Below, piece by piece: positions 37,301 through 64,000 of a DNA stretch of 64,000 bases. Under the pieces are notes generated by a model. That model was given only the letters and a program-made list of their open reading frames with translations, was not told the origin of the DNA and did not search any database. Positions within the stretch are counted from its first letter, which is position 1; every line of letters starts with the position of its first letter. Made by a program: the position numbers and the translations under genes. The DNA comes from Anadara kagoshimensis (taxonomy: Eukaryota > Mollusca > Bivalvia > Arcoida > Arcidae): NCBI GenBank assembly GCA_021292105.1, contig CM037860.1:12790698-12854697 (forward strand). Direction: 5' to 3'.

Positions 37301-40300
37301 TCTGCCTTAAAAATGAAAGCTTCTTGACTGTGTCATTAATCACCACTGCTCTATTTCACTCCCAATTTGAATGTAACCATCTTTGAATATTCCATGATAA
37401 GATATCAGAAAGGTATTGAATTCACATGAAATTGAAAAACAAAATTGTGTCATGTGGATTGTTGTATGTGTAACTATATATCATTGACACCAGAATAAAA
37501 TAATTATTTATGATAATTATTATTTACTTGTTTACAGTTTGCATTTGCACATGACACAGCCCGGATCTTACAGTGTCTGATACAATATGGCAAGTTAGAC
37601 CAGAAAGAAATGATATTTGACGAATTAAAAGGTAAAGTTTTAGTGTCAAGTTAAAAGTATCAGTGTAATGCATTAGGCTCTGTATTGTGAGGTAGGCCTA
37701 AAGTTTGACCACTACCACACAAAACAGTACACATTGCAACACTGTAAGAAGGAAATTTTTGGGAGAATCGTCATTGTAATAAATTTGTGTATATTTCTGC
37801 ACTATTTGATGATGGCCAATGCAAAATATTAAATATTTTATTTGGGAAAGGTTATAGTTTTGTGTATTCTTACTCTGAAAATTTACTTAAAAATAAAAAT
37901 GAACACAAAATTTCCTGATTTACATCACATACATGTATCTAATTCTGTAGTCTTTAAAAAAAATGCTAAACAAAGTGTATGTACTGGTAGTTAATATAAA
38001 ATAAAAAGAATATATGTTAGTTAATTTTACAGAACATCTAGAATATGGTAAGACAACATCATAAAACACGAAAATGTTGCCACTTGGCTATCTGGATTTA
38101 GCTTCATTGATGTAAATATTAGATGTTATTGTTCAAAACTGAATCAAAATACATCTAGGAAACTTGTGATCCAAAAACATATACAATGAATTGATACTGC
38201 AGTGATATTTACATCCCTAACCAATGGCATATACATATTTTGTTAGTATGTGTGTAATAAATTAAGAGTATAAAAATGTCTGGTGGTGGTAAAATTTTTA
38301 TTACCAGTAATTCTAAATACATGTAGCAGGTCATTTATAACAGAAAGTTAAATATTTCTAAATTCAGCCCATATATTACTTATACTACATGTATAAGCAG
38401 TTTTTCTTTGTTTTCCATTTTAGATCAAATCTGTACAATGGCAAAGTCAAAGTATGGCAGATTTCTGGTTAAGAAGTTTTTGATGTATGGGTAAGTGTAT
38501 CACTTTAATACATGTCCATGTATGTATTTATAAGCACAGATTTACTTGGTCACTTGTATATGATGAAAATTCCTTCTTTGGTTTCTGAACTTATAGGTCC
38601 ATTTTTGGACATTATTAATAGGGGGAAGAGGGTCCATTTTGGACATTATTAATAGGGGGAAGAGGGTCCATTTTGGACATTATTAATAGGGGAAGAGGGT
38701 CCATTTTGGACATTATTAATAGGGGGAAGAGGTCCAAAAATAAAATGCTGTACATTGATTATCTCTTAAACTCCACTGTCATACTATCCCGGAACATGTG
38801 AAAACATAATTATTTCACTTGAGAAATATGGGATATCACAAAATGATGTTTTCTGCTTTAGCTTTGATATTTGTCCTCTAATGTGTTAAATCAGATGCAT
38901 TGATTGATGAGTGAATGGTTTTTACATCCTAGTCATTGATATCGCTTATGTTGAGACATCATCATCACCAGCTGTAGGTGAAGTGGCAGAAATTTTTACC
39001 TTTGCAGAGTGGTATGTGATAAATTGGAGCAAGCACATGTAATGATAAGACACCTGTATTGTTTGCAGCATATTTCAATTTTTTAGCTCACCTGAGCCAA
39101 AGGCTCAGATGAGCTATTGCAATCTATCACCGTCCGTCGTCCGTCGTCCGTCGTGCGTCGTCCGTCGTCCGTCGTGTGTAAACTTTACATTTTAATCTTC
39201 TCCTCCAAAACTACTGGGCCATATTTGATGAAACTTGGTGATTATCATGCCTGGGTAACAGCCTTTCAAAATTGTGTTCGGGGTTTGGCCACGCCCAACA
39301 AGATGGCGGCTGTTACTAAAAATAGCCAAAAGACAAAAAAATCTTCTTCTCTGAAACCAAAAGGTGCAGGCAAATTTTGATTGGATATTTGGATTCAGCA
39401 TACCTGGGAACATAAAAATTGTGTTTTTCATGAAAATTAGACGAAAAATAGGTTACGCGTTTTTGCGTAAAATTACCTAATTTTTAAAATGAGACATTTA
39501 TTGTTATAACTTCATAACGGCTGAAGATAATTGTATGGAGTTTTCACTGTTGATCTTGTCTTGCAATTTTCTTCCAATTGATGTCAAGGTCGAAGGTCAA
39601 GGTCATGTCCCAGTTTTTGACCTTTGATAAAAAATGCTATTTTTTTAACATTTCTTGTGATAATGGCACAGGATTTTCAGTTATTTGTAGGTATTGACAT
39701 GACGATCATTTTGATACATAGATCAGGGTCATGGGTTCAAAGGTCAAGGTCACAGATGTCCAAGAATACCAAAATAGTTAATTATCTGCAAAACTAAACT
39801 TTTTGTATAGGCATGTATATTGGAATATTGTAGGTATTGGCCTAATGATCATTTTGATATATGAATGAAGGTCATAGGTTCAAAGGTCAAGGTCATAGAA
39901 TTGAACAAATACTTAAATGGTTAGTTATCTCAAAAACTATAAACTTTTTGTATAGTCATGTATATTGGAATATTGTAGGTATTGGCCTAACAATCATTTT
40001 GATATATGAATGAAGGTCATAGGTTCAAAGGTCAAGGTCGTAGCTGTGAACGAATATTTAAATGGTTAATTATCTCAAAAACTATAAACTTTTTGTATAG
40101 GCATTTATTTTAGAATATTTTAGGCATTTGCACAACGATCATTTTGATATATGAATGAAGTTCATAGGTTCAAAGGTCAAGGTCATAGATGCAAACTAAT
40201 ACTTTAATGGTTAATTATCTCAAAAACTATAAACTTTTTGTATACGCATGTATATTGGAATAAGGTACGTATTGGCCTAACGAGCATTTTGATATATGAA

Positions 40301-43300
40301 TGAAGGTCATAGGTTCAAAGGTCAAGGTCATAGAGGCAAACAAATACTTAAATTGTTAATTATCTCAAAAACTATAAACTTTTTGTGTAGGCATGTATAT
40401 TGGAATATTGTAGGCATTTGCACAACAATCATTTTGATATATGAATGAAGGTCATAGGTTCAAAGGTCAAGGTCATAGATGCAAACAAATACTTAAATGG
40501 TTAATTATCTCAAAAACTATAAACTCTTTGTATAGGCATGTATATTGGAATATTGTAGGTATTGGCCTAATGCACATTTTAATATACAGATGTTTTAGCT
40601 ATTTATAAATAATATATTATAGCTAGACTTTAAATATGTTATATATAGCATACTTATATAATAATTATTATAATTAATTTGCAAAAATACTTGCATATTA
40701 TTGGCCCTTACTGCTGAAAATTTTGATTTCTCTTTTATTAATGTCATTGACCATTGAACCTCTGCACAAGATATGTACTCTTCCTCAGGTGAGCGTTAAG
40801 GCCCATGGGCCTCTTGTTTTATATTTTACAGCACCAAACATCACAGAAACTGTGTATTTAAGAGTTTCCATGGAGAAGTTAGGAAGTTAGTTAGACACAG
40901 AGTAAGTTAGCCCTTTCATTGTTTCTGGCTTAACTAAATATAAAAACAGATAATAGATCTTTCTGATTAGACACAGTAAATTAGCCATTAAAATTTGTAA
41001 CAGATGTACATGTAGCTTCTTATGGATGGTGGACATACAAAATAAGTTACTTTATATATCCTAAGTAAACCAAAATGACCAATAACCAATGAGTATTTTG
41101 GTTTTAATGAAAATGCAAAAAAGCAGTAAAACAACTGTATTTAGGTCCAAAAGATTGACGAAATAAGTATAAATATTAAAATGGTTTTGTATTTTGTTTA
41201 TAGGAAGCATCAGAAGTTGTAGAATTTGCTTATAATGAGTATGCTAATGCTTCACAGAGATTGTCATTATTAGAGGATTTCTATGGTCCAAGTTTTACAT
41301 TGTTTAAGGTAGGATGATATTACATACAACATGTTTGTGTACCAGAACCATTATGCCTTATTTATTTTTTTGTTTTAATATTACACACAGACTTTTTATC
41401 AAATAGCTGTAAAAAAAAACCTTTTTAAAATTAGAATTTTACTAGTTGGAAAACTGAATAATTGATCATTAAGAGATAATGCCAATTTCTATTAATTTAA
41501 AATCCCAGAGAATAGAGAATTTTCATTTCTATTTTAACAATCAGATTATTCTTTGAATAAATTTTCCAGACTAAATATCAGTAGATAGACACTTTTCACT
41601 GTTTTTATGCTTTATAACTACTGTGTACAGTGAAACATGTCCAATCTGAAATTTATCTAGACAAGTTTTTGTTAAAACTACATGTATAAAAGAACATATT
41701 TTTGTTTTTACAGTTTCATTTTCCAAGCAATGTTATATGTAAACCCTAATACATAAGTTAAGACATGTATTCAGTTTCAAAACTTGGGTATAGTTTAGAC
41801 AGATTTTGATGTACAATGTAATTTATCAGAAAATTTCATGTACATATGTTAATATGGATATGAAAATATTTAATATTTGTCTTAGACATCAGTTAGCAGT
41901 ATACACATATTATAAAAGGTGCTTATCTTTTTGAAAAACCCGACCTTACTTCCCTGGTGAAAGTTCACATGTTTAGCTAAAGTTATCAGTTTTCAAAGTT
42001 TCAACTTTGCATTTTGGATTGTGATTTGGACACAGATCGGTATGTTTGATTTTGATTATGATATATTTAATTTTTTTACTTTACAGACACCAGATATTAA
42101 GTCATTAGATCAGATGTTACAGATACAACCAGACAAGAGAGATATGATACTCAGTAATATGAAGGAAGCTTTGTTACCACTTATTGACAAGTATGTAGAA
42201 ACCTATGTTTTATTTCCTGGTACTCAAAATCGCCATTGGCCCCTAATTATTGAGAAAAACTTTCAAAAAGTAATCTTTTTAGAAAATTTGTGAAAAAAAT
42301 AAGAACTATATTGAACATTTGGCTACAAATCTGAAGTTTTAACACTTTTAAATCTTTTTAAAGAGAATGACATGGAATGAAATATTTTGAAACATACAAT
42401 GTGCATCTATCAATCATATTACATATAGATTTCACAGTATTTGTTGTTTTATTTAATGTCAAAATTTACAATTGAATCTTAGTATCTCTAATTCCACTTG
42501 GAAATGAAAACAGTTCAACTTATCTGATGTTCGAGAAAATTAGAGTTGTGAACAACAAACAAATTTGGAAGAGTCATCTTTGCAAGCCTTGTCGTTAATA
42601 ATTTTGACATAACCCTTGTCCAGTAAAACCAATCTCTCTCACTCCTAGTTCTAATTAGTATTAAATACTTCCTAACACTTAAGATGTTTAACTTTTGATA
42701 ATGGTATGGAGTACCAGGTAGTGGCGTTTTACACCTGGTCAAGATTCTTTCACTTATATTTAGGTGGTCATTTCTGAGATTTTAATTATATCTTGTCAGA
42801 AGATGAAACAACATCAAGGCAAATAACTACTGTATATTATAAAAGTTCTTGCAAATACATAAGTCAAGTCTTCTATTTCTTTGCGATAAGAAAAGTCTTT
42901 ATTTTGTGCAATAAATTATCACTTACATTTTTGTTTCAGATCAATATTAATACATTCCATGGTGCATAGAATTTTCTATGAATATTTTGTTCATGCCAAA
43001 GAGAAAAACAAAATTGTAAGTATATTCATAGTATCTTTAGCTTTGAACAAAACATTGGAAACAGTCTTTAGTTAGTGATTTAACTTGATACACATGCATG
43101 TCATTACTTTCCAATATCAAAGATGTTGTGTTTACAATTTCTTTCAATTGCTAAGTAAAATGTTCACCTTTTCAAATTCAATGTTAACGAGGCAAATATA
43201 TGATTGTAGACATTTTTCATAGCAAAGGGCACTTCTATGAAAATCCCCAGGTATATAAGGTATATTATAAATAAACACTCCTGGAAACAATAGTTAAAAG

Positions 43301-46300
43301 GTTAATTTACATGGTTTTGTGTTATTACAGTTCTCTGACAATATGTGTAATAATATATTTAACTTTGTGTTTCAGGAAATGGCAGAGTCTCTGAGAGAAA
43401 GTGTTGTACACATGGTTCACACACGAGATGGTTCCAGGGTTGGAATGTATTGTGTTTGGTATGGCACTGCAAAAGTAAGCTCAATTTTTTATCATAAAAG
43501 TTCTAAATACACATTACATTTTATTATTTATTAAAGCATCAGCCATGCTGAATGCTTTATAGCGATCGTTGGATTTTTTCGTATTTAGCGCCGCTCTCAT
43601 TTCACCTTGACAGCCAATCAAATCCTTCGTTTCGACTGTAATTACGGGAATTTCCATATACGGTATCCCAGGTATGTATAAACTCTAATCTGAGTGATTG
43701 GGTCTCCCGGAAAGTTACGAAAGCAATGTTTTCATCATGGACACATGTGCCTATCTGAAATGTATTCATATGCGTATTAGTCCGTAATTGATTTTGCTGG
43801 ATATATATTTTAATTCTTCACTTTTGTATGATAATTTTAAGATAAAAACCATAAAAATCCATAAAGTATACGCCCCTCGGAAAACCCAACAAAAATGACG
43901 ATCTTGTCAGTTCGCGCCGACGTTCTTCTTTTTGACCTACAGTGCTGTACATGTGGTTATTTTACAGTCGCCGCCATATTGGTTTTTTTTAATTTACGCA
44001 AAGTGACATCGATAAATAAACACAAAGTATGCTCATTAAACAATTTTTAAGTTAAATAACTTTAAACATGGATCACATTTGATGATAAATTATATATATT
44101 TATGAAAAATTGTTCGTGTTTGGGATATCCCGACCTGGTTCATTAATATGCATCATAACGTCACGAGGAATTTCCCGCTTTCATTGGGTATAATATTCAT
44201 TCCTGTCAGTTTGCCGGTAGCGAAATTATGCATAACAAAAAAGTAGAAATCAAAGATTATTCCAAAAAATGTGATACGAAACTGAAAGAAGAAGTTTATT
44301 TACAAGTTAATGGCTATGTTGATAAATCGTTTGTGACTCGTGAAGTTGTGTAGGATATCGATACCGTAGTTCGTATGCAAATTAGCCATGTGTTTGGGGG
44401 CATGGCATTTGACACCCGATGCCCCTGCTCAAATGTATTCACATAGCGTAGTGACTGACCTTTTTAGTCCAGTACACCCTTGCCCCTTTTAAAATGATCA
44501 TGACACCCTGTCCTTTTCAGTTATCAGTTTAATATAAAAACGACATGCTTTATTCTCGAATCTCTGCAAATACTTCCGATCTTCTGCACACACTCCACTT
44601 CTCACCATAATGTCTCCGAAGACAGACAATTTCATCATCAATGTTCATTTAAATACCTTTTCCAGTTGTTTATTTTGAATCAACAAAATAAATCGCGAGA
44701 AAAAACAACTTGAAATCAAAATCTAAACAAAACTGAAAAAACGATGTTTTAAAATTTTTTGATAACATTTATTTACCTTGTTACAAGTCCTTATTAGATC
44801 GTTTTTACAGTGGATATCCGATTAAAGTTGTTGTCAGTAGTTTAATCCATGGTTTTTACAACCTTTAATTTCTTTTCATGAAGCCACATTACGTTATTTC
44901 ACATAAAATGAACAAATATGATGGTGACCACTGGGCATGCAGGAAAACATTGTGCTTTCTTAAGTTCTTCCGATTTCTAGAGCACCGTTGGTGAAGTAGA
45001 ACAGAAACTAAGGGCGGGGAAAATAGGGTACCAATCTTGTGAACTCAACTCCTCTTACAGTTTTCAACCAAAAACCTTGAAACTTCACAAAATGTTTCTA
45101 TATATATTGAAGATGTGCACCTGACTTTATGGAAATATTTCAAGATTTTTTTCCCATTTTTCAAGACTTTGAAACTTAGTCACTTTTTAGCAAGTATTAG
45201 AATGGGGGTACCTACTTTGTGAACTCAACTCCTCTTACAGTTTCTCTTAAGTTCAAAGTAATTTTATTGTAACATTTTAGTTGTCTAAATAATAATCAAT
45301 TAATTTTCAATGAATCGTATTCAGAAATATTTCCCCCTTTTGTACACAATTCTTGTCAACAAACTTTTTTTGAAAGAGACAGTTGCCTGGACAACTTCTG
45401 TAACTGGGAGGTACAGATTATTAGCTTATTGTGTCAGGATGGTTTATACCAATTCAGGCTTTTGAAGCTCACTTGGACAATTTATATATATTCAACAATA
45501 ATTTTAAATACATTTAAATTATTTCTAAAACAAAGGTTTTATTTTTATTTTTTTTTTTTTTCAAATTAATTGTGAATTCAATGAATAAAATTAATGACTT
45601 CAACAATGGTTAATCTGTCAATTGCAAGTCAAGGGAAATAGCTGGTCATGGTGAAAGTTTTTTTTTTGTGATGATGACACTATGTCGATGATGATCTGGT
45701 GAAGATGATGATGACATTCAGTTCTGCTGCTGCCGATGATGATGTCACCATGATGATGATGATATGACATGAGGAGATATAATGATGATGATGATGATGA
45801 TGATGTGACATGAGGAGATATGATGATGTCACCATGATGATGATGTGACACGAGGAGATATGATAATGATGTTCTGTTGATGCCGATGGTGATAATGATT
45901 ATCGTGATGAAGAAGATGATAGTGATGGTGGTGATGAAAATAAGCTCTGCTGCTATGAATGGTGATGGTTATGATGACGATGTGACTTGACGAACTATGA
46001 TGATGATTATGATGGTGACATGAGTTCTGTTGCCGCCGATGATGATGATGGTGGCAATGATGACATTCAGTACTGCTGAGCACTGCCGATAGTATGATGA
46101 TGATGATGATGATGGTGGTGATGACATTCAGTTCTGCTGCTGTCGATGATAATAATAATTCACGATGATGATGATGATGACAAAGCCAATGTCTTCATGC
46201 TGATGATGTGACATGATGATGATAACATTCAGTACTGCTGCTGCTGATAATGATGATGATTATGTGACACGAAGAGCTATGATGATGATGTGACCATATT

Positions 46301-49300
46301 AAAGATGTAACATGAGGATTTCTGAAAATGATTGATATAATGGTGGTGGTGATTGTCATGGCATGGGTTCTACTGCTGCTGCTAATGACGACGATGATGA
46401 TGATGATGATCTTCATGTTGATGATCAAAATGTGATATGAGAAGTGATAATGATGATGATGGTGGTGATTACAGATCCAGTTTGGGTTTTCTTCCAGTCA
46501 ACTGCGTTTTAGTGGAGTTATGCCCCTTTCACTTTGTGAATTTTATCAAAATGATGGTTTCTCTGGACTTTTTTCCGTTACGCTTGAGATATTTCACTCA
46601 GATTTGGGGTCGGGTCTTTAGTAGCCTCTCTTGGTTTTTGAAAAATTGAAAATTTATATTTATGCTAATTACTTAGTTTACTCAATTGATAAACATTGCG
46701 TGGCATGTCCATTTTGACCATTGTAACATATCTATATGTTAGAACCTAACAACTTGCATAAAAAGCAGACTTGCCGATCACAGTATCCATTATTTGCATG
46801 ATTTTCATTTGTTACTGATTCATCAAACAAATCTCAGTTTCAAGTGCACATATTTTTTTTATCAAATTGCTCAGTTTAGCTGATGCTTCAGTACCTTCAG
46901 TACTTTGATTCTTAATATTCAGGAGTGAAGTACATCATTTAATTGTAATGTTAATTGCACAAAATGTTTCGACTCATTTCATAGTGATCAATTATATTTA
47001 GATATGTGTACTTGTAACTGATTGTAATTCATTCAATTTTATAAAGCTTTGACTTGGATTTGAATATGCTTATTTCATTTTTAATCACTTCCCCAAAAGA
47101 CTTATTATTTTTACTGACAAAAGAAATTTCCTTGGCACCATTTCGCTTCCTATTGATTATGTTATAATAAATCTGCTTTAACAACCAAAACTCTCAAATT
47201 AAAATTCAATCACAATACATATGTTTTAACATAAATACAAATACAGTTCTATCTTGCAATGATGTTCCTTGATAACTTTGCCTCCTTGCTTCTCAACCAC
47301 AGTTTTTTTAAGTCACAAAATCTGTCTCTTCTATGTTTTTCTTTATAAACCACCCTCAATTTATCACCAAACCCCTTTATTACATGTATATCCAAATTTG
47401 ACTGAAAAAGTAATGGTGATAAATCCAGGTATAATCATAAATGTGAGTAGGAGTTTCATTAAATGAATTATTATTTCGTTATTTTGTAGGACAGAAAGAT
47501 GTTGATAAAGAGTATAAAGACACACATTCTAAAGATTTGTAAAGAAGAGTACGGTCACTTAGTCTTACTGTCTATATTTGACAGTGTAGATGATACAAAA
47601 ATTGTACAGAAGGTTATACTAGAGGTAAATCTCATTCTACATCTACATGTACATATGTATTGCCTGACTAATAATTCTGATTTCTTTTGCATTGTTCAAT
47701 ATAGAAACGGCCATTGGTCCCTTATTTTGTCAAATGTCCCCATTGTTAAGGCCATATTTAACAATACATGAATGCAAAAATATTGATGTTATGTTGTTTT
47801 AGAGGGGAGCTTTTGAAAATGACCCCTTCTAAAAAATTCTAGATTGAACACTTTTGACTTAAAAAACAGATTTTTTGTGAAATGCTTCTTTGATAACTGT
47901 TCCTATGCTCTCTTTTGTTTTTTTAATTCTATGTTTCCATTCCTGGTAGCTTAAATCACCATTGGCTAATCGTTTCTGAGAAAATCTTTCAAGAAGCAAC
48001 CGTTTAAGTTGTTTTGTTAGACTTGATACACATGCAAGCTACACTTTTCCAACAACTCTTGTATAGCTTCCTTTATTAATATTTTACTTTGACAAATAAA
48101 CTGTTATAAGTTTTATTGTATATTTTTCCAGGAAATAGTGAAACATGTGTCGGAGTTAGCTCAGGATCAGTATGGTAGAAAAGTGTTATTGTATTTACTA
48201 AGTCCTAGAGACCCATTACACTTCCATCCAGATATTGTCAGAATCCTTCAAGAAGGGGATAAAAACCCTAACAGGTAACATTGATTTTATGTTGTCAAAA
48301 TTTAATGACTGAAGTAGAGTAAAGTAATGGAGTTTTACACCCCAGTCAAGATTCTCTATTTTATATTGAGATGATCAGTACATGCATGGTGGAGGAAACT
48401 GGGGTGCATGGAGAAACCACTGACCTTTGGCAAGCAAACTAGACAGGGAGAGGTATTAAATTCTGTAAGCACACACTTTAGACCACTCAGCAAACAAGAA
48501 TCCAGAAATTAAACAAGAAGCAAAATAAATACATACTAGGACATAACATTTCCGTTCGATATTTTTGTTGTAGTAAAGTTTATAAATTGTTTTCCCTGTA
48601 ATATTCATGTAAATGAGAATCAAGTTATCTAATGGTCTTGTCTTGAATTTGGAATTAAGTGGTTCAAGTCAAAATCTATATCACCACTGAAGTAACTCAG
48701 TTGATAGAATGCTCGCTCCCTATGTGGGAGGTCATGGGTTCGAACCCTGGCTGGGTCTGACTCAAGGCTTGAGGTTAGTGACTGTTCTTTTGCTAAGCAC
48801 TCGGCATAACGAAATGAAAATCACAACTCTTTCAGATGGGAACTTAAATAAATGGGGTCCTGTGTCGTGGTAGGTGTAGGAGGATAAAGAACCCTGCTGT
48901 ATAATGCCATCAGCGCATTGCAGAAGCAACATTTTTGCACCTTGGCCTATAGCTGGCAACATCTCGAAATAAGTGAAATATTCTTGAATGGGACCTTAAA
49001 CACATTACTTAACTCGGCTCAAAATCTATATCAAGCCTAATCTATAGGTTCACCAGGTTTGTCCCTCTGAGATTCTATTCTTTATAGTCAGAATGGCGAT
49101 TGAACCCATTGCATCATGATTTTGGTGTTAACCAATCAGCTACACATATAGTTACAAAAAATACACAAAGTTTAAAAATGAAAAAAAAACACAGGTTTCT
49201 TAGACACTCATATTTGGTTTGTAAAATAAAAGAAAAAAATTCAAATTTCCAAAAGTGTTTGTGATTTTACTAAATATAAACATTTTATTTGTTTGTAGTA

Positions 49301-53210: not shown

Positions 53211-54161
53211 GCATGATTTTAAACATCTTAAATATTTATTCCCAGAGAATATTTCTGATTGTACAGTAACTTAAAATAGATTCAGTTTTGAATTAGAATT
53301 TAAAGACAAAAAGATTAAAAAGCATGGTCAATTAAATGTTGGTGTTTTTATATTGGTTAAATAATGAAACTTCTTTTCTGTCTACATTGACTGATGATAA
53401 AAAATTACCTCATTTAAATTTATTCATGACCCGTGTTCCACTTTTACAGATTTGTTGTATTTGTCAAAAAAGTCGGTGATATCCACCTGTGGTATCTATG
53501 TTATGGTAATCGCCCAAATGCTATATAAGGTATCTCCCTTACATCCAGACATGAGCACTGACTGGAATACAAATGCCATATCTAAATAATTTTAGTCATC
53601 TGCACACAAGTTTTGATTACGTCTCTCACCACTGTGTGTGGAGACTTACTGTCCTTATTCCATTTCTCCTCTATTTTTTTTTTAAATTTTTATTCTACTA
53701 TTTTCTTCCCTTTTTCTCTTGATGTTATCTTTCTTACTCCATTCAGAATGATATAAGTGTATAAACTTGTAAATTAACCATTTATCTGGAATGTGTATGT
53801 TTTTATTCAGCATCATTAAAGTTTTATGTTATTCCTTTCTTTTTCCAAAAACTATTTTTAATTTCTTCATTCCCTCAGTAGATTTTAATAACTGGTTGGA
53901 TTATTACCAACCATTTATGTGTGTTCATTTTGTTGCACAACTCCAAGTATGTATAATGTATTTAATATGAAAAAAAAATGTTTGACAGGCATTGGCATCA
54001 ACCCATCTTATTGATACAGTAGTGTATCAATTTGCCTGGAATTCAGTCTCGGTTCATTGTTTTTGCAGAGTTCCATTCTGATCCAACTAAAAGGGGGAGG
54101 CAGTGGGTGGGGGTTAACAAAATGCTGGTAATTGGCCCAGGTTTCTAAAGAAATTCAGAAT

Positions 54162-54323
54162 GGGTTTTGCCACTGTACCATGTGATAACAATCCCTTAAG
54201 GTTTGGAAAACGTTAACATCACAAATTCAGGGGATAATGTTGTTTTTTATGGGAAAACATATCCAATGGAAATGATAGTTTCGCACAAACGTTAGGAGGT
54301 ATCACATGGTACAGCAGCAAACC
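54162..54323. mobile_element. MITE with TIRs, copy B
   Basis: Left GGGTTTTGCCACTGTACCAT then GTGAT; right, inverted, GGGTTTGCTGCTGTACCATG then TGAT. Same family as copy A at 52209-52402; they share TATCACATGGTACAGC and the GGGAAAA interior. Confidence 0.8.
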
Positions 54324-55009
54324 CAATGGTTAGATTTTTTTCACCACTAATAATAATTTTTAGCAGGTTTTTATATCGTAATATATTTTCATAAATTAAG
54401 ATAAAAGTGAGAAATGTAAATTTTTTGGGGGAAAAAGTGTTTTGATATGGTCTTTTATATTTCTATAATTATAATCTATTTTGGATTTAAAGTTGTGCAA
54501 TGTTTTAATAATAAATCTTATGTTCTGTTTTCTGTCTTGAAGTGATTTCCTGGATGTGTGGTGAATAGTTAAAAACAACATAAAAATGACTGGCTATTTT
54601 GTTTAGCACACTCAGATCTTGTTTCACAATCATTCCTTAACTAAGATTTTCCTTTACTCAAATCTTATATATTGAAATCTGATAAGAAGTTGTTAGTTTT
54701 CAAGATATTCACGGATTAAAGCGGTGATTTTGAAGATCATTCTACTGTAGGAACCACTGTGGCTGTGACAGTGAAATTCTCTTTATATCCATAGAAAATC
54801 AAATAAATTTGAATAAAGATCGATATTTTTCACTTACTTGTACCTAGTCGTAACAGGAAATCTGTATGCTCATTTTATCATGGCAGGCATGGCACATAAG
54901 TAGCTCAACATTAAGTGCATTGTATACGAACACATTTCTCTATTTGTAACAACCATGTAAATCGGAATCCAAATGATGACATGCATGTAAATAAAACAAT
55001 CTTGGTTGA

Positions 55010-55300
55010 ATGGGGTTTTAACGTCCCAGTCAAGAATATTTAATTTATATCGAGACATCATCAGCTATAGGCGAAGTGGCAGAAATTTTACCTTTGCAGT
55101 GTGCTCAGGGCAATGTGTAGTGAGGGTTCTTTAACGTGACATGGAGCATTAGTTTTTAAGGTTTCTTCTGAAGGACATTGTGACTTCCATTTCTTAATCC
55201 TGAGTGTTTGGTGAAAGAACAGTCGCTATCTATTTTTAAGTCTTGGTCAGACCCGGATGGGGTTTGAACCCAAGTCCTCCCACATACAAAATCATGATTG
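55010..55300 (-). mobile_element. SINE type II, minus strand
   Basis: TTTTAACGTCCCAGTCAAGA, ATATCGAGACATCATCAGCT, ATAGGCGAAGTGGCAGAAAT, GAGGGTTCTTTAACGTGACA, TCAGACCCGGATGGGGTTTG and AACCCAAGTCCTCCCACATA: full reverse-complement type II order. It lies between the convergent 3' ends of PUM3 and the ABCA gene. Confidence 0.88.
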
Positions 55301-55467
55301 GGAATATTAGATCTTTTTAAGTCGAACCATAGTGGTAGCTATAGCTGGTTGTTAGGGAAGACAAAAAACAATATAATTTTTAAACATGTTTAATTTTTAT
55401 CTTTCATTTCAATAAATAAATAAACAATGAATATTTACAAAAACATGATTATGTATCTCAACCAAAA

Positions 55468-55493
55468 TCTCTCTCTCTCTCACACACACACAC
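55468..55493. repeat. (CT)n(CA)n compound microsatellite
   Basis: About six CT units then about six CA units, directly adjoining. Confidence 0.92.
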
Positions 55494-56072
55494 CATGATA
55501 CACATACACGTATCTCCATAGTAATACAAATGAGAGCACTTCACAAGAGTACAACCTTGATTTGTGTCTTATAACTTGTGTTCCATGTTTTTTAAATCTT
55601 TGTAGTTTGAGTATACATTACAATTTTATCGTTGAAAATTGTTACACAGACATTCTTATGATTTATAATTTAACTGACCCCAAAACATACCGTCAGTGGG
55701 CAAAAACTTGGCTGGTCTTTTCAATTTCAGTTTGGCATCGAGAAAATATTTTGCCACTCTTTGTCTTAAGATTTGACTTTCATTTTTTCTCTCAAAAACA
55801 TGTCACCGAATATCTGATCGAAGTATACGAATAAATACCAAATTACAAAACTGATTTTTCAAAAATAAAATGGATTGCTTTATATTATAATGTGGACACC
55901 TTTTTCAAAATATAGACACAATTTTCTCAATGACTGGGTCACAATGGTCCAACTAACCCATGGTTTAGATTGAACACTCTAACAACAAATGTAGGTCACT
56001 AGTGTTTCTCCTCTATTTTGTAGTAAGAAGGGTATTTTCCAGCATCTGTGAGGATTGATAACAAATGATGGA

Positions 56073-59000
56073 TCACAGAACTTTCAAGGCAGATTTAGCT
56101 GCTGATCTACTAAATGTGTCAACTCTGCTCCTGTTGTTATCATCTGGTGGTGTGATGCCTGTCTCTAAATCTGGCATGTCACTTAAAACTGAAAAATATA
56201 ATAAACATATACAATTCTATAGCCGACACATAATCGGCGAAAAAAGAATTAGTGAGATAATTTTGCTGAATATATACTACTGACAATTAGCAAAAAAAGA
56301 AATAAAGTTGCCAAGTAAATAAATGCATGTACTAAGAAAAATTAATTAATCTCGATTCATTATACCCGTTATTGATTAATTTAATTTATATTAGTATTAA
56401 ACATAGTCAGCCACCACAACTAAAATTTAAGCAAAAGCTGAAGCACCTAAGAAAAGCTAACAAATTCCCAAATCTTTTTTTAATTACATTTTAATGAGGT
56501 TTTTGATAAATATTTATTTAGTACTTTTGAACCTCTATCCATAGTAACTATGTATGATAGTATTTATATTTATATTTATCTTAATTAGAAATATTTTCTA
56601 GAGCAGTTAAAAGTAGCATCCGATTCAGAACCTTTCAAAATTCTGGCTAAGTTTGTTTCCAAATGCATGGATGGTTTGAAACACAACAAAAACTCCATAA
56701 CTTACGGTGGTCAATTTCATCTGAGTAATATCTTCTATGTTTTGAGAAATTACATCTGCATTTTTTCTTTGGAATACAGCATAATTTTTCACAGCAAAAC
56801 TTGTACAAAGAGCGTCTGGAATTAACTGCATAAATAAACAAATATATAGGTACATGTGTGATATTTCAAATAACAAGGAACTCAGAATTCTGGAAAAGTT
56901 TATCGTTTCTTAACTTATCTGAGCCACAAAAGCAGTTAGCACTTGCATGCACTTTTCAACTCGTGTTATATTCAACTAAAATAATGAACACTTTCATCTT
57001 CAAGTAATAACAACTTCAGATAATTACTATAACTATCTGCCTTTCAAAAATTAATTTATTCTGCTTTGTGACTTCAACAAGAGCATCCCTAATGTGGGAG
57101 GTGAGTTGCAGGTTTTAATTTGTAAAGGGTCTGGTTGAAAAACAATTATGAAATTATTTAAATCATAAATGATATTATATGAGCTTGACCTCATTGGAAG
57201 TCCAGTTGAAGAAAATATCAAAATAACAAGAGGCCCAATAGGGCCTGTACCGCTCACCTGGGCCGTAAACAGCACAAAAAACACAATATATACTACATTT
57301 AAGGAGCAATAACTCTGATGTGGATATTTAGATATTTATGAAACTTGCAACTTGCATCTGTGACCTTGACTTTCAAACCAATGACCATAATCTATATTAA
57401 AATGATCACTGCATCAATACCAACAATATTCTAATATACATGCCTATACAAAAAGTTGATAGTTTTCGAGATAATTAACCTTTTTGGTATTGTTTTGCTA
57501 CTGTGACCTTGACCTTTGGACCCTTGACCTTTTTCTATACATCAAAATGATCGTTGTATCAATACCTACAACATTCTAATATACATGCCTCTACAAAAAG
57601 TTCATAGTTTTCAAGATAATGAACCATTTCAGTATTCTTTCGCATCTTTGACCTTGACCTTTGAACCAATGACCTTAATCTATATATCAAAATGATTGTT
57701 ACATCAATACCAACAATATTCCAATATACATGCCTATACAAAAAGTTTATAGTTTTCAAGATAATTAACCTTTTTGGTATTGTTTTGCTACTGTGACCTT
57801 GACCTTTTGACCCATGACCCTTTTCTATACATCAAAATAATCGTTGTATCAATACCTACAACTTTCTCATATACATGCTTATACAAAAAGTTCATAGTTT
57901 TCAAGATAATGAACCATTTCAGTATTCTTTTGCATCTGTTACCTTGACCTTTGAACCAATGACCTTAATCTATATATCAAAATGATCGTTACATCAATAC
58001 CAACAATATTCCAATATACATGCCTATACAAAAAGTTTATAGTTTTCAAGATAATTAACCATTTTGGTATTGTTTTGCTACTGTGACCTTGACCTTTGGA
58101 CCCTTGACCTTTTTCTATACATCAAAATGATCGTTGTATCAATACCTACAACTTTCTCATATACATGCTTATACAAAAAGTTCATAGTTTTCAAGATAAT
58201 GAACCATTTCAGTATTCTTTCGCATCTGTGACCTTGACCTTTGAACCAATGACCTTAATCTATATATCAAAATGATCGTTACATCAATACCAACAATATT
58301 CCAATATACATGCCTATACAAAACGTTTATTGTTTTCGAGATAATTAGCCATTTTGGTATTGTTTTGCTACTATGACCTTGACCTTTTGACCCATGACCC
58401 TTTTCTATACATCAAAATAATTGTTGTATCAATACCTACAACTTTCTCATATACATGCTTATACAAAAAGTTTATAGTTTTCAAGATAATGAACCATTTC
58501 AGTATTCTTTTGCATCTGTGACCTTGACCTTTGAACCAATGACCTTAATCTATATATCAAAATGATCGTTACATCAATACCAACAATATTCCAATATACA
58601 TGCCTATACAAAAAGTTTATAGTTTTCGAGATAATTAACCATTTTGGTATTGTTTTGCTACTGTGACCTTGACCTTTGGACCCTTGACCTTTTTTCTATA
58701 CATCAAAATGATCGTTGTATCAATACCTACAACATTCTAATATACATGCTTATACAAAAAGTTCAAAGTTTTCAAGATAATGAACCATTTCAGTATTCTT
58801 TCGCATCTGTGACCTTGACCTTTGAACCAATGACCTTAATCTATATATCAAAATGATCGTTACATCAATACCAACAATATTCCAATATACATGCCTATAC
58901 AAAAAGTTGATAGTTTTCGAGATAATTAACCTTTTTGGTATTGTTTTGCTACTGTGACCTTGACCTTTGGACCCTTGACCTTTTTCTATACATCAAAATG

Positions 59001-60252
59001 ATCGTTGTATCAATACCTACAACATTCTAATATACATGCCTATACAAAAAGATAGTTTTCAAGATAATGAACCATTTCAGTATTCTTTCGCATCTGTGAC
59101 CTTGACCTTTGAACCAATGACCTTAATCTATATATCAAAATTATCGTTACATCAATACCAACAATATTCCAATATACATGCCTATACAAAAAGTTTATAG
59201 TTTTCGAGATAATTAACCTTTTTGGTATTGTTTTGCTACTGTGACCTTGACCTTTGGACCCTTGACCTTTTTCTATACATCAAAATGATCGTTGTATCAA
59301 TACCTACAACATTCTAGTATACATGCCTATACAAAAAGTTGATAGTTTTGCAAGATAATGAACCATTTCAGTATTCTTTCGCATCAGTGACCTTGACCTT
59401 TGAACTAATGACCTTAATCTATATATCAAAATTATCGTTACATCAATACCAACAATATTCCAATATACATGCTTATACAAAAAGTTTATAGTTTTCGAGA
59501 TAATTAACATTTTTGGTATTGTTTTGCTACTGTGACCTTGACCTTTGGACCCTTGACCTTTTTCTATACATCAAAATAATCGTTGTATCAATACCTACAA
59601 CTTTCTCATATACATGCTTATACAAAAAGTTCATAGTTTTCAAGATAATGAACCATTTCAGTATTCTTTCGCATCTGTGACCTTGACCTTTGAACCAATG
59701 ACCTTAATCTATACATCAAAATAATCGTTACATTAATACCAACAATATTCTAATATACATGCTTATATAAAAAGTTTATAGTTTTCGAGATAATAAATAA
59801 TATAAGAAAGGTAAAAAATTAGGTCATGACCTTCATAATTGACCTTAACACCATTTTGAAGATAATTGCAAGAATATGTCAAAACTGAAAACCCCATGTC
59901 ATTATCTGGTCGTATAGTCAAGTTATAACAATTTAAAAATATTTTACAATTTTTGCAAAATTAAACTCAAAAACGCGTAACCTATTTTTAAACCAAATTT
60001 CATGAAATGAACAAACTTAAAGGTTAAGACTATGTAGAATCCAAATATTACATCAGTTTTTGCCTCTAATGAGTGGTTCAAGAGAAGAAGATTTTTTTTA
60101 GGTTTTGTCTATTTTTAGTAACAGCGGCCATCTTGGATATTCGATCGCCATGATTTGAACAAACTATAGTTAGACTCTGTCAAGGACCTTCCATGGCAAA
60201 TTTGGTTTCAGTTGGCCCAGTAGTTTCAGAGGAGAAGATTAAAGTTTACTGA

Positions 60253-60283
<31 letters not shown>

Positions 60284-62341
60284 CTCGCCATGCCATAAGC
60301 TCACATGGCCTTTGGCCAGGTGAGCTAAAAACTCCCAAGTTGTTATCTTTATACAAAGTTAAGTTATAGCAATGTAAAGTTTGTTTTATAAAAAATGAAC
60401 TGTCACCATTGAGCTTAGCTACAGTACGTATTAAACAAAACAATGATGAAAAACACAAAAATTAAGAATTAGCTTTATATGTGGCATAATTGAAAAAGGT
60501 CATGACCTTAACCTTTTATCTTGGCCTAAATTTAAAAGTCGGTCAAACTGAAATCTTTACATTTAGTAAAGACATATCAATTCAATTAAGCTAACTCTGT
60601 TGACATTGCTTGAATTAAAGCATGCAAAATGCACCTCAGATCCAATGCTATAGCTTCAGTTCAAATCAATTCAAAACAAAAAAGTAAATGCCCCTTAACC
60701 ATGCAATTTGAACAAGAGGCCCAGGGGCCACATCGCTCACCTGAGCAACTTGCTAGGTAGAAGCCGAAATGAGTTCAGTATTGAAGTGAGTGCAGGGGAG
60801 GGAGGTTTTGTACAAACTGAAATCTATACTTCCTACCGATGCTTTTCACTAAACAATTTGTAAGTATTTCTATGTACCGTAAAAGGTTGATGTTTCGACA
60901 AGCCTCGGCTTATTCCGTTACCTTTTTCTTACAGCATTTCAACCAATGAAATAATTTTAAAAAAAATTTTCATCATGCAATCTACCAATCTCAAAAGAGA
61001 GAAAATGCATATGCCGAATACTGTAATCGGGAAATGGCAAATAGAAATTATAGAATACAGCAGGATTTACATTAAAAAATTAAAATTAGCTTTTAAATAC
61101 AAGTACAATTAATATATTTCTCATGAACAATATATTTAACTTTATATCAAAATACTTATATAAAAGAATACAGCATGGAAAATACACTATTATTTAACCA
61201 TGATTTGAACAAACTTGAATCTACACTACCTGAGGATGCTTCCATTTTAATTTGAGCTTTCCTGGCCTAATAGTTTTTGAGGAGAAGATTTTTAAAGATT
61301 CTCTCTATATATTCCTGTGTAAAACTTGACCCCCCTCTTGTGGCCCCACCCTACCCCCAGGGACTATGATTTGAACAAACTTGAATCTACACTACCTGAG
61401 GATGCTTCCATTTTAATTTGAGCTTTTCTGGCCTAATAGTTTTTGAGAAAAAGATTTTAAAAAATTTTCTTTATATTCCTATGTAAAACTTGATTCCCCT
61501 CTTGTGACCCCTCCCTACCCCCGGGGACCATGATTTGAACAAACTTGAATCTACACTACCTGAAGATGCTTCCATTTTAATTTGAGCTTTTCAGGCCTAA
61601 TAGTTTTTGAGAAGAAGATTTTTAAAGATTTTCTCTATATACTCCTATGTAAAACTTGATCCCCCTCTTGTGGCCCCTCCCTACCCCCGGGGACCATGAT
61701 TTGAACAAACTTGAATCTACACTACCTGAGGATGCTTCCATTTTAATTTGAGCTTTCCTGGCCTAATAGTTTTTGAGGAGAAGATTTTTAAAGATTCTCT
61801 CTATATATTCCTGTGTAAAACTTGACCCCCCTCTTGTGGCCCCACCCTACCCCCAGGGACTATGATTTGAACAAACTTGAATCTACACTACCTGAGGATG
61901 CTTCCATTTTAATTTGAGCTTTTCTGGCCTAATAGTTTTTGAGAAAAAGATTTTTGAAAATTTTCTTTATATATTCCTATGTAAAACTTGATCCCCCTCT
62001 TGTGACCCCTCCCTACCCCCGGGGACCATGATTTGAACAAACTTGAATCTACACTACCTCAGGATGCTTCCATTTTAATTTGAGCTTTTCAGGCCTAATA
62101 GTTTTTGAGAAGAAGATTTTTAAAGATTTTCTCTATATACTCCTATGTAAAACTTGATCCCCCTCTTGTGGCCCCTCCCTACCCCCGGGGACCATGATTT
62201 GAACAAACTTGAATCTACACTTCCTAAGGATGCCTCCACAAAAGTTTAAGCTTTACAGGCCGAATAGTTTTTGAGAAGAAGATTTTTGAAAAATACCAAC
62301 AAAGTTTCAATAATTCTCAATTATCTCCCCTTTAAAGAGGG

Positions 62342-62380
<39 letters not shown>

Positions 62381-62428
62381 TAGTGGTGCTTTGTGCCAAA
62401 TTTGGTTGAAATCTGCCCAGTGGTTCGT

Positions 62429-62467
<39 letters not shown>

Positions 62468-62496
62468 GACAACGACGACGACGACAGACAACGGAC

Positions 62497-62528
<32 letters not shown>

Positions 62529-64000
62529 TGGCTCAGGTGAGCTAAAAAGGTATACATAATGAAACAGAAAATGCTAGATACATTGTATAAGCAACAACAC
62601 CACACAAGGTTGATTTCAGCTATCACATGAGTGGAGTTACAGTGTTTTATGTCCCAGTCAAGATTCTTTCACTTATATTGAGATGGTCAGTTCTGGGAGG
62701 AAATAGTTCTCAGAGACAACCAACACCTATTGGCATGTAAAAACACAAACTTTCTCACAACAGAATCTGCCCATGTTGGATTAGAACGTAGGAGGGGACA
62801 GGCACTGTTATCTGTAAGCTAGCGATTTACCAATGCCCCTACCACATGAGTAATTTGTAAAGATGGACATATTACTTGATTATACAAGCACATGTGCAAT
62901 GTATCCATATAGGTACAAAACAAGTGGATTATTAGTTTGATTTGAAGCAATCCAAGGAAATTGTTAACATAATTAATCAGCATGCTTTAATTATATAAGC
63001 TATGTAAGCATCTTGATCGAAAGCAAAGTAGGCAGATATGCAGAGCTTCAAGCATTAATATACTTGTAAAAATAAATAAAGTATTAGTAAACAAACCTTT
63101 CTTTAAAGCCAGATTTTGTGTAGCATTATACTCATCATTAGGTAGATCTGACTGCTTTTTGGCAAAATTAATGAACACCTAGAAAAAAGAATGGAAATAC
63201 TAATACTGCATGTATGAAATTTAGACCATTTGAAATACTAGTAGATATTTTGATCTGAATTTTTTTATTGAGATAGAAATTTTTAAGCAAATTGTCCCAG
63301 TGCCTAGTAAACTAAAATGTTTAACAACCACTCAAAAATTAAACTCGTAACACATTTTTTTACACAAAAAGTTTACTCATACATGTAACTCAATATTTTG
63401 CCCAATTTTTTGCTAATACCGGTATACAGCAATGTTGGACTATTTTATCTTGGGTCTCTTACACAGAAAAAGGATTATTTTTACACTGCCGTGGGTGACT
63501 GAAAAAACCACTAATCCCAAAACAATTTTACTGGCTTAGATAAACGGAGTCTAAGATCTCAGCCCCTTGTTGGCTATATCTCGATACCTTTTTAACAGTG
63601 TCTAGCTGCTGAAAGATAGCTTTGCACCTTAGCCTCTAAACTTTAACTAAAATCAATATGTAGATGAAGATGAATTTTAGTGGAATGATACATTTAGTGC
63701 ATTTATCAGATTAAGCAATAAAAACTAAAACTTTGGTGATGCTGATTTATGCCCCTGCATAGGTCTGGTCGGTATGCAGCATGTCATCTCTTGTTGGTTT
63801 ACATTTGTGTCAAGTTTGATCAAAATCTATCCATAGAGAAGGAAGCTATAGAGAGACGTGGTATTGAGACAGTCAGCCAGGTGGACAGATGGATGGACGG
63901 AAAAAGTGATTCTTATATATGTATATCTCCTTAAAATTCATTCTTGTGGGGTATAAAAACACACATAATTTACCTGATCTAGCGTTGTCTGGGAGACAGA
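56073..64000 (-). CDS. ABCA-subfamily transporter, C-terminal exons (partial)
   Basis: The gene enters from the right edge. Exons: 63974-64000 (incomplete; SVSQTTLDQ), 63097-63178 (VFINFAKKQSDLPNDEYNAT) and 56073-56188 (LSDMPDLETGITPPDDNN, ending SAAKSALKVL and TGA). Phases agree (0, then 1). SVSQTTLDQVFINFAKKQS matches the segment after the second nucleotide-binding domain of ABCA1-type full transporters, including the VFVNFA motif (here VFINFA) known to be needed for lipid efflux in ABCA1. ABCA proteins are membrane lipid exporters or floppases. The tail after the motif is not conserved, so the exact member (ABCA1/4/7 or ABCA3-like) cannot be told. A 6.9-kb last intron carries two hairpin-ended elements. 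A possible extra exon lies at 56706-56825. Confidence 0.88.
56706..56825 (-). other. candidate cassette exon in the last ABCA intron
   Basis: A 120-bp stretch with good borders on the minus strand: TTTATTTATGCAG|TTAATTCC and GACCACC|GTAAGT. Its length is a multiple of three and phase 1 inclusion stays open, but would add a Cys/Lys-rich peptide (SLYKFCCEKLCCIPKKKCRC). A second, more protein-like frame (LIPDALCTSFAVKNYAVFQR) does not fit the flanking phases. It may be an alternative exon, part of another gene, or chance. Confidence 0.35.
57225..60330 (+). mobile_element. hairpin-ended tandem-core element, copy 2 (3106 bp)
   Basis: Starts AACAAGAGGCCCAATAGGGC (hairpin GGCCC-AATA-GGGCC) and CGCTCACCTG; ends with hairpin AGCTCACATGGCC-TTT-GGCCAGGTGAGCT (60298-60326) and AAAA. 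Next to it are a (GCAC)n microsatellite (60252-60285) and the conserved stretch AATTTGGTTTCAGTTGGCCC / AGTAGTTTCAGAGGAGAAGA. The core has about 17 units of about 145 bp from 57361 to 59790, in two alternating variants (GGACCCTTGACC and GAACCAATGACC). It is the same unit as copy 1, inverted. It lies in the last ABCA intron. Confidence 0.9.
60711..62547 (+). mobile_element. hairpin-ended tandem-core element, copy 3 (1837 bp)
   Basis: Starts AACAAGAGGCCCAGGGGCC and CGCTCACCTGAGC; ends AGCTCACTTGAGCC-TTT-GGCTCAGGTGAGCT (62513-62543) then AAAA. A GACGAC microsatellite (62458-62490) precedes the hairpin. The core is a different array: about seven units of about 166 bp (starts near 61201, 61368, 61531, 61698, 61863, 62029, 62195), with a three-unit block duplicated (61201-61698 and 61698-62195). 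The unit (TTTGAGCTTTTCTGGCC, TAATAGTTTTTGAGAAGAAG) resembles the element's own subterminal sequence (TCTGCCCAGTGGTTCGTGAG, AAGAAGAT). Confidence 0.9.
62630..62850 (-). mobile_element. SINE type III, diverged
   Basis: GTGGAGTTACAGTGTTTTAT, CCCAGTCAAGATTCTTTCAC, TTATATTGAGATGGTCAGTT, GGGAGGAAATAGTTC and ACAAACTTTCTCACAACAGA: reverse-complement type III; the tRNA head is eroded. Confidence 0.72.
63740..63955 (+). repeat. dispersed repeat, partner of 5540-5755
   Basis: Same order of phrases as the 5.5-kb copy (TCAAGTTTGATCAAAATCTA, GGACAGATGGATGGACGG, GTGATTCTTATATATG, TGTGGGGTATAA). It abuts the ABCA exon at 63974. Confidence 0.65.

What the first reader, a model, noticed from the sequence alone, without database searches (positions are those of the whole stretch)
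39081..62547. A hairpin-ended, tandem-core element family with one fixed plan and interchangeable cores
Three copies share both termini (AACAAGAGGCCC hairpin at one end; AGCTCACCTGAGCC stem-loop then AAAA at the other), a conserved subterminal phrase (GGCCCAGTAGTTT, GAGGAGAAGATT), and a GC-rich microsatellite placed just inside the stem-loop that is a different repeat in each copy (CCGTCGT, GCAC, GACGAC). The central array differs: about 145-bp units in copies 1 and 2, about 166-bp units in copy 3. This recalls bivalve pearl elements and Helentron-associated elements (tandem core plus microsatellite), but the double-hairpin plan and core swapping look distinctive. The replication mechanism is unknown to me.
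Basis: partly seen in the sequence, partly recalled or inferred. Interest (0 to 1): 0.8.

Follow-up and report, generated by a model that had tools for sequence, protein, structure and literature searches.

The report
Satellite-carrying Helentron copies with autonomous relative
The three odd repeats are stripped-down copies of a known kind of rolling-circle jumping gene (a Helentron) that carries satellite-like repeats around the genome, and this genome also holds a full-length relative with the same kind of ends, one of the same satellite repeats and an open enzyme gene.

Summary
Three copies with one plan lie at 39085-40818 (+), 57225-60326 (-) and 60711-62543 (-). Their end signatures are very common in this 1.1-Gb genome: 10,336 exact hairpin ends and 13,055 exact stem-loop ends, reversed-pattern controls 0. 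In the sample examined, 69 of 79 hairpin ends have a correctly oriented stem-loop within 15 kb; shifted controls average 5.1, maximum 12.

They are non-autonomous Helentrons (HINEs). An 18.0-kb relative has the same 5' stem-loop plan, microsatellite and subterminal phrase, the 145-bp core array, a 2,611-aa open frame (Rep, PIF1 helicase, C-terminal endonuclease) and the same 3' hairpin. Empty sites for two insertions show a T-run target and no target duplication. Four examined members of one class are 93-94% identical to it over 1.66 kb.

'Core swapping' is also real: copy 3's 5' tip is 99% identical to that of three 145-bp-core elements up to a sharp breakpoint, and the 166-bp monomer matches the 5' subterminal modules of copies 2 and 3. 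HINEs with exchangeable satellite cores are published in oyster, where the autonomous partner was called unresolved (PMC7492417).

The parts
39085..40818 (+). copy 1: non-autonomous Helentron (HINE), 1.73 kb, preceded by a T-run 39079-39084
   Evidence: 5' module aligned with autonomous A
39085..39115 (+). copy 1, 5' subTIR plus complementary IR (stem-loop)
39131..39175 (+). copy 1, CGTCCGT microsatellite
39194..39220 (+). copy 1, conserved subterminal phrase AATCTTCTCCTCCAAAACTACTGGGCC
   Evidence: alignment with A
39685..40586 (+). copy 1, 145-bp core array
   Evidence: 83% identical to the array of autonomous A in the longest alignment
40784..40818 (+). copy 1, 3' subTIR (CTCAGGTGAGCG), palindrome GGCCCATGGGCC (40800-40811) and terminus
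57225..60326 (-). copy 2: HINE, 3.10 kb
57225..57264 (-). copy 2, 3' terminus, palindrome (57232-57245) and 3' subTIR
57352..59794 (-). copy 2, 145-bp core array (also fitted as a 290-bp unit)
   Evidence: about 87-89% identical to A's array in the longest alignments
60148..60239 (-). copy 2, single 5' subterminal module homologous to copy 3's 166-bp monomer
   Evidence: E 4.4e-7; E 3.7e-8
60252..60283 (-). copy 2, ACGC microsatellite
60298..60326 (-). copy 2, 5' subTIR plus IR stem-loop
60711..62543 (-). copy 3: HINE, 1.83 kb
60711..60747 (-). copy 3, 3' terminus, palindrome (60718-60729) and 3' subTIR
61197..62287 (-). copy 3, 166-bp core array
62345..62439 (-). copy 3, 5' subterminal module homologous to its own 166-bp monomer
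   Evidence: E 2.2e-7; E 1.9e-8
62457..62486 (-). copy 3, ACG microsatellite
62513..62543 (-). copy 3, 5' subTIR plus IR stem-loop

Best explanation
The three copies are non-autonomous Helentrons (HINEs). The 5' end is the subTIR/IR stem-loop after a T-run; the 3' end is the GGCC palindrome and CTCTTGTT. A Helentron Rep/helicase/endonuclease made by autonomous copies such as element A recognises these ends. It nicks in or next to the flanking T-run, unwinds and copies one strand as a rolling circle, stops at the 3' palindrome, and joins the copy to a T-rich target without duplicating the target. The satellite-like cores ride along inside the element and sometimes change when 5' ends and bodies recombine at the conserved subterminal phrase. 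Shown here: ends, coding capacity of A, shared 145-bp core, deletion-derivative relation for four members of one class, empty sites without TSD for two insertions, T-run preference, breakpoint of one module exchange. Inferred: the enzymatic steps, the single-strand or circular intermediate, the order of the ends in replication, and that an A-like protein mobilises these particular three copies.
For: Paired ends: 69 of 79 in the sample. Autonomous element A, 17,989 bp, C9:18110526-18128514: 3' end compared on three copies and 5' end on two. A's 2,611-aa open frame matches Helitron_like_N (1e-26), PIF1 (2.4e-25) and Exo_endo_phos (1.2e-5, just over its cut-off). A carries the 145-bp array, 81-89% identical to copies 1 and 2 in alignments of 400 bp or more. 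Four HINEs with A's own stem-loop and linker are 93-94% identical to A over about 1,660 bp. Empty sites for two independent insertions, one of them of A itself, show no duplication beyond the T-run. 10,936 of 13,055 stem-loops follow TTTT. 91 of 100 listed core words lie within 6 kb inside a hairpin, 91 of 91 in one orientation.
Against: The end class of A (linker TGATAC, stem-loop ACCGAAGGTCATG) is not that of copies 1-3 (TTAAC, TGTACC, ACATC). No autonomous element with exactly those ends was found; 3' stretches next to Rep genes of element B and five other lineages, and three stretches at A's offsets around two further Rep copies, held no such end. In the 240- and 300-nt 3' stretches compared, A and copies 1-3 align only over the last ~36 nt. 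10 of 79 hairpins had no partner by exact pattern. Within the T-run a short duplication of T cannot be told apart. No transposition was observed.
Confidence: 0.95

Rival explanations
1. Foldback/MITE-like DNA transposons with hairpin ends moved by a DDE transposase (how bivalve 'pearl' elements were first classed).
For: Short inverted repeats near both ends. A DDE_1 transposase ORF lies in the window at 30560-32410.
Against: No duplication of non-T target bases at two independent insertions. Ends are asymmetric: stem-loop at one, palindrome at the other. Ends of the same kind bound a Rep/helicase/endonuclease element. No link between the DDE ORF and these ends was seen, though its own ends were not searched for.
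Confidence: 0.02
2. Canonical Helitron derivatives (5' TC, 3' CTRR, insertion between A and T) rather than Helentrons.
For: Shared Rep/PIF1 helicase core and no TSD.
Against: Target is a T-run, not A^T. The terminus is CTCTTGTT. A carries a C-terminal endonuclease match. SubTIR, IR and microsatellite are present. The canonical motifs are recalled.
Confidence: 0.03
3. For the cores only: each core was captured independently from free satellite DNA (filler model) rather than inherited from autonomous parents or amplified from the element's own sequence.
For: Different classes carry different cores. 9 of 100 listed 145-bp words had no exact hairpin nearby. The 145-bp unit had no significant match to the subterminal modules. 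The 166-bp profile did not reach E 0.01 in the 5' module of A or of the TTATAC elements, and only E 0.018 in copy 1.
Against: The autonomous element already has the 145-bp array in the same place and orientation. The 166-bp monomer matches the 5' subterminal module of copy 2, whose core is different.
Confidence: 0.25

Closest known systems
Cg_HINE elements of the Pacific oyster (PMC7492417)
   Same: 5' subTIR and complementary IR, microsatellite, satellite-like core with monomers averaging 140-180 bp in fixed orientation, 3' subTIR and palindrome, T-rich target, no TSD, related flanks with unrelated cores ('group 2')
   Different: Sequences not compared here. The oyster authors could not relate any of ten autonomous elements to the Cg_HINEs; here an autonomous relative with matching end plan and core was found.
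Helentrons/HINEs and DINE-1 (PMC4067079)
   Same: SubTIRs, 3' palindrome, IR nested with the 5' subTIR, microsatellite or tandem core, T-run target, no target modification, Rep/helicase with C-terminal endonuclease in autonomous partners
   Different: There, derivatives are given as >95% (Culex) or 98% (DINE-1) identical to their partners; here the closest class is 93-94% over 1.66 kb. The 3' subTIR lies about 23-27 nt from the end here against about 38-60 bp given for mite HINEs.
Pearl elements of bivalves (seen only as described in PMC7492417)
   Same: ~160-bp core repeats in an element once called a MITE and later re-classed as a non-autonomous Helentron
Helitron2 (as described in a passage of PMC4067079)
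   Same: Asymmetric inverted repeats and palindromic sequence at both ends
   Different: Helitron2 is described as lacking the endonuclease domain; A has one.

Membership tests
Helentron / HINE | Subterminal inverted repeats at both ends | tested here: met
   GCTCACCTG(A/G) at the 5' end and inverted near the 3' end in 9 of 9 elements listed (copies 1-3, A, five others)
Helentron / HINE | IR next to and complementary to the 5' subTIR | tested here: met
   stem-loops; 13,055 genome-wide, control 0
Helentron / HINE | Palindrome near the 3' end | tested here: met
   GGCCC-(2-4 nt)-GGGCC 7 nt from the terminus in copies 1-3 and in A's C14 copy; combined end pattern 10,336 genome-wide, control 0
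Helentron / HINE | Microsatellite in the left module, optional central tandem repeats | tested here: met
   in autonomous A, microsatellite, array
Helentron / HINE | Insertion in T-rich target without target duplication | tested here: met
   empty sites for two independent insertions; 10,936 of 13,055 stem-loops preceded by TTTT. A duplication of T alone cannot be excluded.
Helentron / HINE | Autonomous partner with Rep, helicase and C-terminal AP-type endonuclease sharing the ends | tested here: met
   element A; direct for the TGATAC class, by end homology only for copies 1-3
Helentron / HINE | Autonomous partner with exactly the end class of copies 1, 2 or 3 | tested here: inconclusive
   fetched 3' stretches of five other Rep lineages show no such end, but their true ends were not located
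Helentron / HINE | Helentron-type Rep motif 2 / Rep phylogeny | not tested
   no reference set aligned
MITE / foldback transposon | Target site duplication | tested here: not met
   (two insertions)
Canonical Helitron | 5' TC, 3' CTRR, A^T target (recalled) | tested here: not met
   termini and T-run target
Pearl | Sequence relation to CvA/CvE/CvG | not tested
   no pearl sequence was fetched

The most novel reading that the evidence does not exclude
Autonomous Helentrons, not free satellite arrays, are the source of the dispersed satellite monomers here. The 145-bp monomer is a standing part of a recently active autonomous element. The 166-bp monomer arose by amplifying the element's own 5' subterminal module. 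Cores are then traded between lineages by template switching at the conserved phrase that ends in GGGCAGATTTCAAC, so the element acts as a shuffling cassette that makes and spreads satellites.
Probability: 0.35. Interest if true: 0.65.

Novelty: new member of a known kind. Interest (0 to 1): 0.45.

Why it matters
The element kind is known, so the finding itself is not a new class. What is useful is the autonomous relative. In oyster, one group reported that it could not relate autonomous elements to the satellite-carrying HINEs (PMC7492417), and the chromosome-level oyster paper reported no evidence of autonomous copies and judged the elements likely inactive (PMC7992393, passages). Here, 15 fetched copies are at least 99.5% identical to the reference copy of A over the stretches that aligned, a further copy (L038) is 95% identical, and five of the 16 A-group matches (L022-L037) have frames of 2,489 aa or longer. 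At least one copy (C9) was read through with the satellite core and both ends, though its 3' terminus has a small change. That makes the question of how dispersed satellites are made and moved directly testable with a two-plasmid transposition assay. The breakpoint data give a concrete example of core exchange and of a monomer that looks home-made rather than captured.

Tried and rejected
Rejected: DDE/MITE origin (no TSD at two insertions); LINE or SINE origin (no TSD; DNA Rep/helicase partner); independent movement of ends (69 of 79 paired); chance similarity of ends (controls 0).

First wrong lead: a hairpin at C5:69017048 lies 10 kb from a Rep gene in the right orientation, and I took it for that element's 3' end. 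Fetching it showed a separate 734-bp HINE with a stem-loop of its own.

Element B (2,529-aa frame; 19 Rep matches of the same score; two copies compared) showed no such 3' end in the stretches fetched. 3' stretches of lineages C, D, E, G and H showed none either, nor did the stretches at A's offsets around the Rep copies at C5:14026146 and C14:17443494. These negatives are weak because the true ends of those elements were not located.

A paper search for the letters AGCTCACCTGAGC gave one paper, unrelated by its title. Rfam gave nothing in the copies. A relation of the 145-bp unit to the subterminal modules was sought and not found (0.083 in copy 1, 0.34 in A).

Rows left out before counts, and capped lists. 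One search used 79 of the 100 listed hairpins (those up to C1:9.05 Mb, out of 10,336) and 99 typed stem-loops (one listed row beyond 9.05 Mb dropped, out of 13,055). One search used the 100 listed core words (of 52,801) and 28 hairpins up to C1:2.51 Mb. In the listing, 145-bp hits in L052, L053, L055 and L056 (autonomous A) were left out of the print. The empty-site search scored only 40 of 2,501 candidates, and for four of the seven joints (copies 1-3 and A on C9) it listed not even the filled site, so it says nothing on those. L084 held no whole element and was left out.
Full report
WHAT IS THERE. Three copies with one plan are present: copy 1 at 39085-40818 (+), copy 2 at 57225-60326 (-), copy 3 at 60711-62543 (-). 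Read from the stem-loop end (the 5' end, see below), each has: a T-run; a stem-loop AGCTCACCTG...TGAGCT; a GC-rich microsatellite; a subterminal phrase around CTTCT(C/T)CTC...GGGC; a core array (145 bp in copies 1 and 2, 166 bp in copy 3); an inverted subterminal repeat CAGGTGAGC; a GGCCC...GGGCC palindrome; and the terminus CTCTTGTT.

HOW COMMON. The combined 3' end (AACAAGAGGCC, GGCC, GCTCACCTG with short gaps) has 10,336 exact matches in the genome and 0 when the pattern is read backwards. The 5' stem-loop pattern has 13,055 and 0. An exact 23-base word of the 145-bp unit (one position free) occurs 52,801 times, and an exact 30-base word of the 166-bp unit 2,799 times. Only the first ~100 places of each search are listed, so the pairing test used the start of contig C1: 69 of 79 hairpin ends up to 9.05 Mb have a stem-loop on the correct side and strand within 15 kb, against a mean of 5.1 and a maximum of 12 in 200 circular shifts. 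The same-side, same-strand count was 1; counts outside the element were 15 (opposite strand) and 10 (same strand). Lengths run from 678 to 8,321 bp, median 1,906; some long ones may be nested or mispaired. The linker class of the 3' end and the stem-loop class of the 5' end go together: TGATAC with ACCGAAGGTCATG 19 times; TTAAC with a ...CTCAGA stem-loop in 22 of 23 pairs; TTATAC with ...CTCAAG in 6 and ACCAAAGGTCATG in 3. The two ends therefore move as one unit in this sample. Of 100 listed 145-bp words, 91 lie within 6 kb inside a hairpin, all 91 in the same orientation; 9 had no exact hairpin nearby.

THE AUTONOMOUS RELATIVE. A six-frame search for the Helitron Rep domain (PF14214) gave 104 matches, in several groups of equal score. 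I fetched one group, element A. 15 fetched copies in it are 99.5% or more identical to the reference copy L028 over the stretches aligned, and L038 is 95% identical. Comparing copies on C9, C15 and C14 fixes the 3' end at ...TATCAGGTGAGCGTATCAGGCCCAATGGGCCTCTTGTT (letters of the C14 copy; the C15 and C9 copies carry small changes), after which the flanks differ. Comparing C9 and C15 fixes the 5' end at TTTTT|AGCTCACCTGACCGAAGGTCATGTGAGCT, followed by a TG/CG-rich microsatellite and CTTCTCCTCTGAAACTACTGG. The 5' end of the C14 copy was not fetched. Element A on C9 is 17,989 bp, C9:18110526-18128514. It contains a 145-bp array just inside the 5' module, in the same orientation as copies 1 and 2 and 81-89% identical to theirs in alignments of 400 bp or more. 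Its 2,611-aa open frame matches, over the family cut-offs, a herpes-tegument-type peptidase family near the N-terminus (PF04843, 3.7e-8), DUF6570, Helitron_like_N (1e-26), PIF1 helicase (2.4e-25) and Exo_endo_phos (1.2e-5; bits 25.6, cut-off 24.5). The HUH-type motif HIHML and a Walker A motif SGGAGVGKS can be read in the translation (motif names recalled). Of the 16 A-group matches L022-L037, five have frames of 2,489 aa or more.

DERIVATIVES. Four HINEs with A's own end class (L080-L083) align to A over about 1,660 bp at 93.0-94.2% identity, from the microsatellite into the core, and share its last ~35 bp with a different short 3' internal module. I read them as deletion derivatives of an A-like element. 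Copies 1-3 belong to sister end classes: the last ~36 nt of each align with A, and copy 1 aligns with A along the 5' module.

EMPTY SITES. A query of seven joined flank pairs was searched against the genome; 40 of 2,501 candidates were scored. Two insertions gave uninterrupted relatives. (a) The A copy on C15 has a 96%-identical empty site at C15:13241335: filled ACTTTGTTTTT|element|TTAATTGTG, empty ACTTTGTTTTTTGAATTGTG. (b) A HINE nested in another repeat: filled GGTCATTTTT|element|GTCATTTATGAC; six uninterrupted places were fetched, of which L061, L063 and L064 read GGTCATTTTTGTCATTTATGAC and L059, L060 and L062 are variants in and next to the T-run. The GTCATTT that flanks the element on both sides is already present in the empty site and is not a target duplication. 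So no non-T base is duplicated and the target is a T-run; within the T-run the exact cut, or a duplication of T alone, cannot be placed. Genome-wide, 10,936 of 13,055 stem-loops follow TTTT. The other five joints gave no uninterrupted relative, which is weak evidence: four of them did not list even their filled site.

CORE EXCHANGE. Three elements with 3' linker TTATAC (L075, L076, L079) carry the 145-bp core but have copy 3's stem-loop class. Up to and including GGGCAGATTTCAAC, their 5' tips are 99% identical to copy 3's (138/139, 137/139, 136/138). The next 150 nt are 64-67% alike, no better than shuffled sequence (mean 68, max 76). In that stretch they are instead 90-93% identical to autonomous A, to which they are only 74-77% alike before the breakpoint. 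Two other 166-bp-core elements (L077, L078) match copy 3 on both sides (99-100%). This is a clean chimera: a copy-3-type 5' tip on an A-type body, or the reverse.

ORIGIN OF THE 166-BP MONOMER. A profile of copy 3's units also hits the single 5' subterminal module of copy 3 (E 2.2e-7) and of copy 2 (E 4.4e-7), which has a different core; a weaker hit is at 60803-60845 (E 4e-4). Nothing else was hit at E below 0.05 among the loci held at that time. Copy 1's module reached only E 0.018 in a smaller search, and A and the TTATAC elements gave no hit at E 0.01. On balance this favours amplification of the element's own sequence over capture of foreign satellite, but capture of a unit into an ancestor is not excluded. 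For the 145-bp unit no such link was found, so its first origin stays open.

MECHANISM. The anatomy and the partner point to Helentron rolling-circle transposition: recognition of the paired subTIR ends, nicking next to the T-run, helicase-driven strand displacement, termination at the 3' palindrome, and joining to a T-rich target without duplication. Ends, coding capacity, target and lack of TSD are shown here; the enzymatic steps are inferred from the family. That this kind of protein mobilises copies 1-3 is inferred from end homology.

COMPARISON WITH WHAT IS KNOWN. I read passages (12 of 20 places shown) and section 8 of PMC4067079 (Helentrons, HINEs, DINE-1) and the abstract, introduction, start of results, sections 7 and 9, and the first part of the discussion of PMC7492417 (oyster Cg_HINEs). 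The plan, T-rich target, lack of TSD, microsatellite, satellite-like core and core exchange on related flanks are described there. PMC7492417 says that ten autonomous oyster elements could not be related to the Cg_HINEs; a passage of PMC7992393 says no autonomous elements were detected in that assembly. The passages I saw of PMC8268682, PMC11136912 (12 of 25 places), PMC10294476 and PMC12628747 did not report such a partner; I did not read those papers whole. My literature searches cover only the held open-access library, and the other papers they listed were seen as listings only; Repbase was not available. I therefore file the finding as a new member of a known kind, with a useful piece that I did not see in print: an autonomous Helentron that carries both the ends and the satellite core.

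LIMITS. The autonomous partner for the exact end classes of copies 1-3 was not found. Copy counts are exact-pattern counts and thus lower bounds. The pairing and core samples come from one end of one contig.

Noticed in passing
L041 (G000:C2:4612000-4621500): A ~2.3-kb unit that contains a 0.7-kb HINE is repeated head to tail: three hairpins 2307 and 2308 bp apart in L041, a fourth exact hairpin at C2:4626145. Flanks of the same HINE-bearing repeat recur at many other places, mostly 95-100% identical, so a HINE is being spread by another repeat.
   Followed up: partly
L066 (G000:C4:37228127-37232127), positions ~1581-2858: Downstream of another Rep lineage (H) the word TCTTGT recurs about every 159 bp, suggesting that this element also carries a satellite-sized array.
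   Followed up: no
L068 (G000:C17:39718064-39722064), ~746-1109: Diverged 145-bp-type units (E 1e-21 and 9.7e-19) lie downstream of Rep lineage D, so the 145-bp core may be older than element A's lineage, or this is a nested HINE.
   Followed up: no
L044 (G000:C1:30602000-30611900), 1602-2167 and 9459-9748: Element B has a 63-bp repeat array inside its frame and a 146-bp direct repeat 3' of it; its ends were not located.
   Followed up: no
window 30560-32410 (-): 617-aa open frame with DDE_1 transposase and Psq-type HTH domains, an apparently open pogo-like transposase (family name recalled).
   Followed up: partly
window 18776-19378 (-): Reverse-transcriptase fragment (RVT_1, 2.4e-13); probably of a non-LTR element (inference).
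   Followed up: partly
window 20584-21912 (+): 442-aa open frame with ankyrin repeats and a SOCS box, likely a host gene exon.
   Followed up: partly
window 7845-7908 (-): Weak tRNA match just above Rfam's threshold (30.3 bits, cut-off 29), possibly a tRNA-derived repeat.
   Followed up: no
window 38596-38736: 34-bp minisatellite, 4.2 copies, about 350 bp upstream of copy 1.
   Followed up: no
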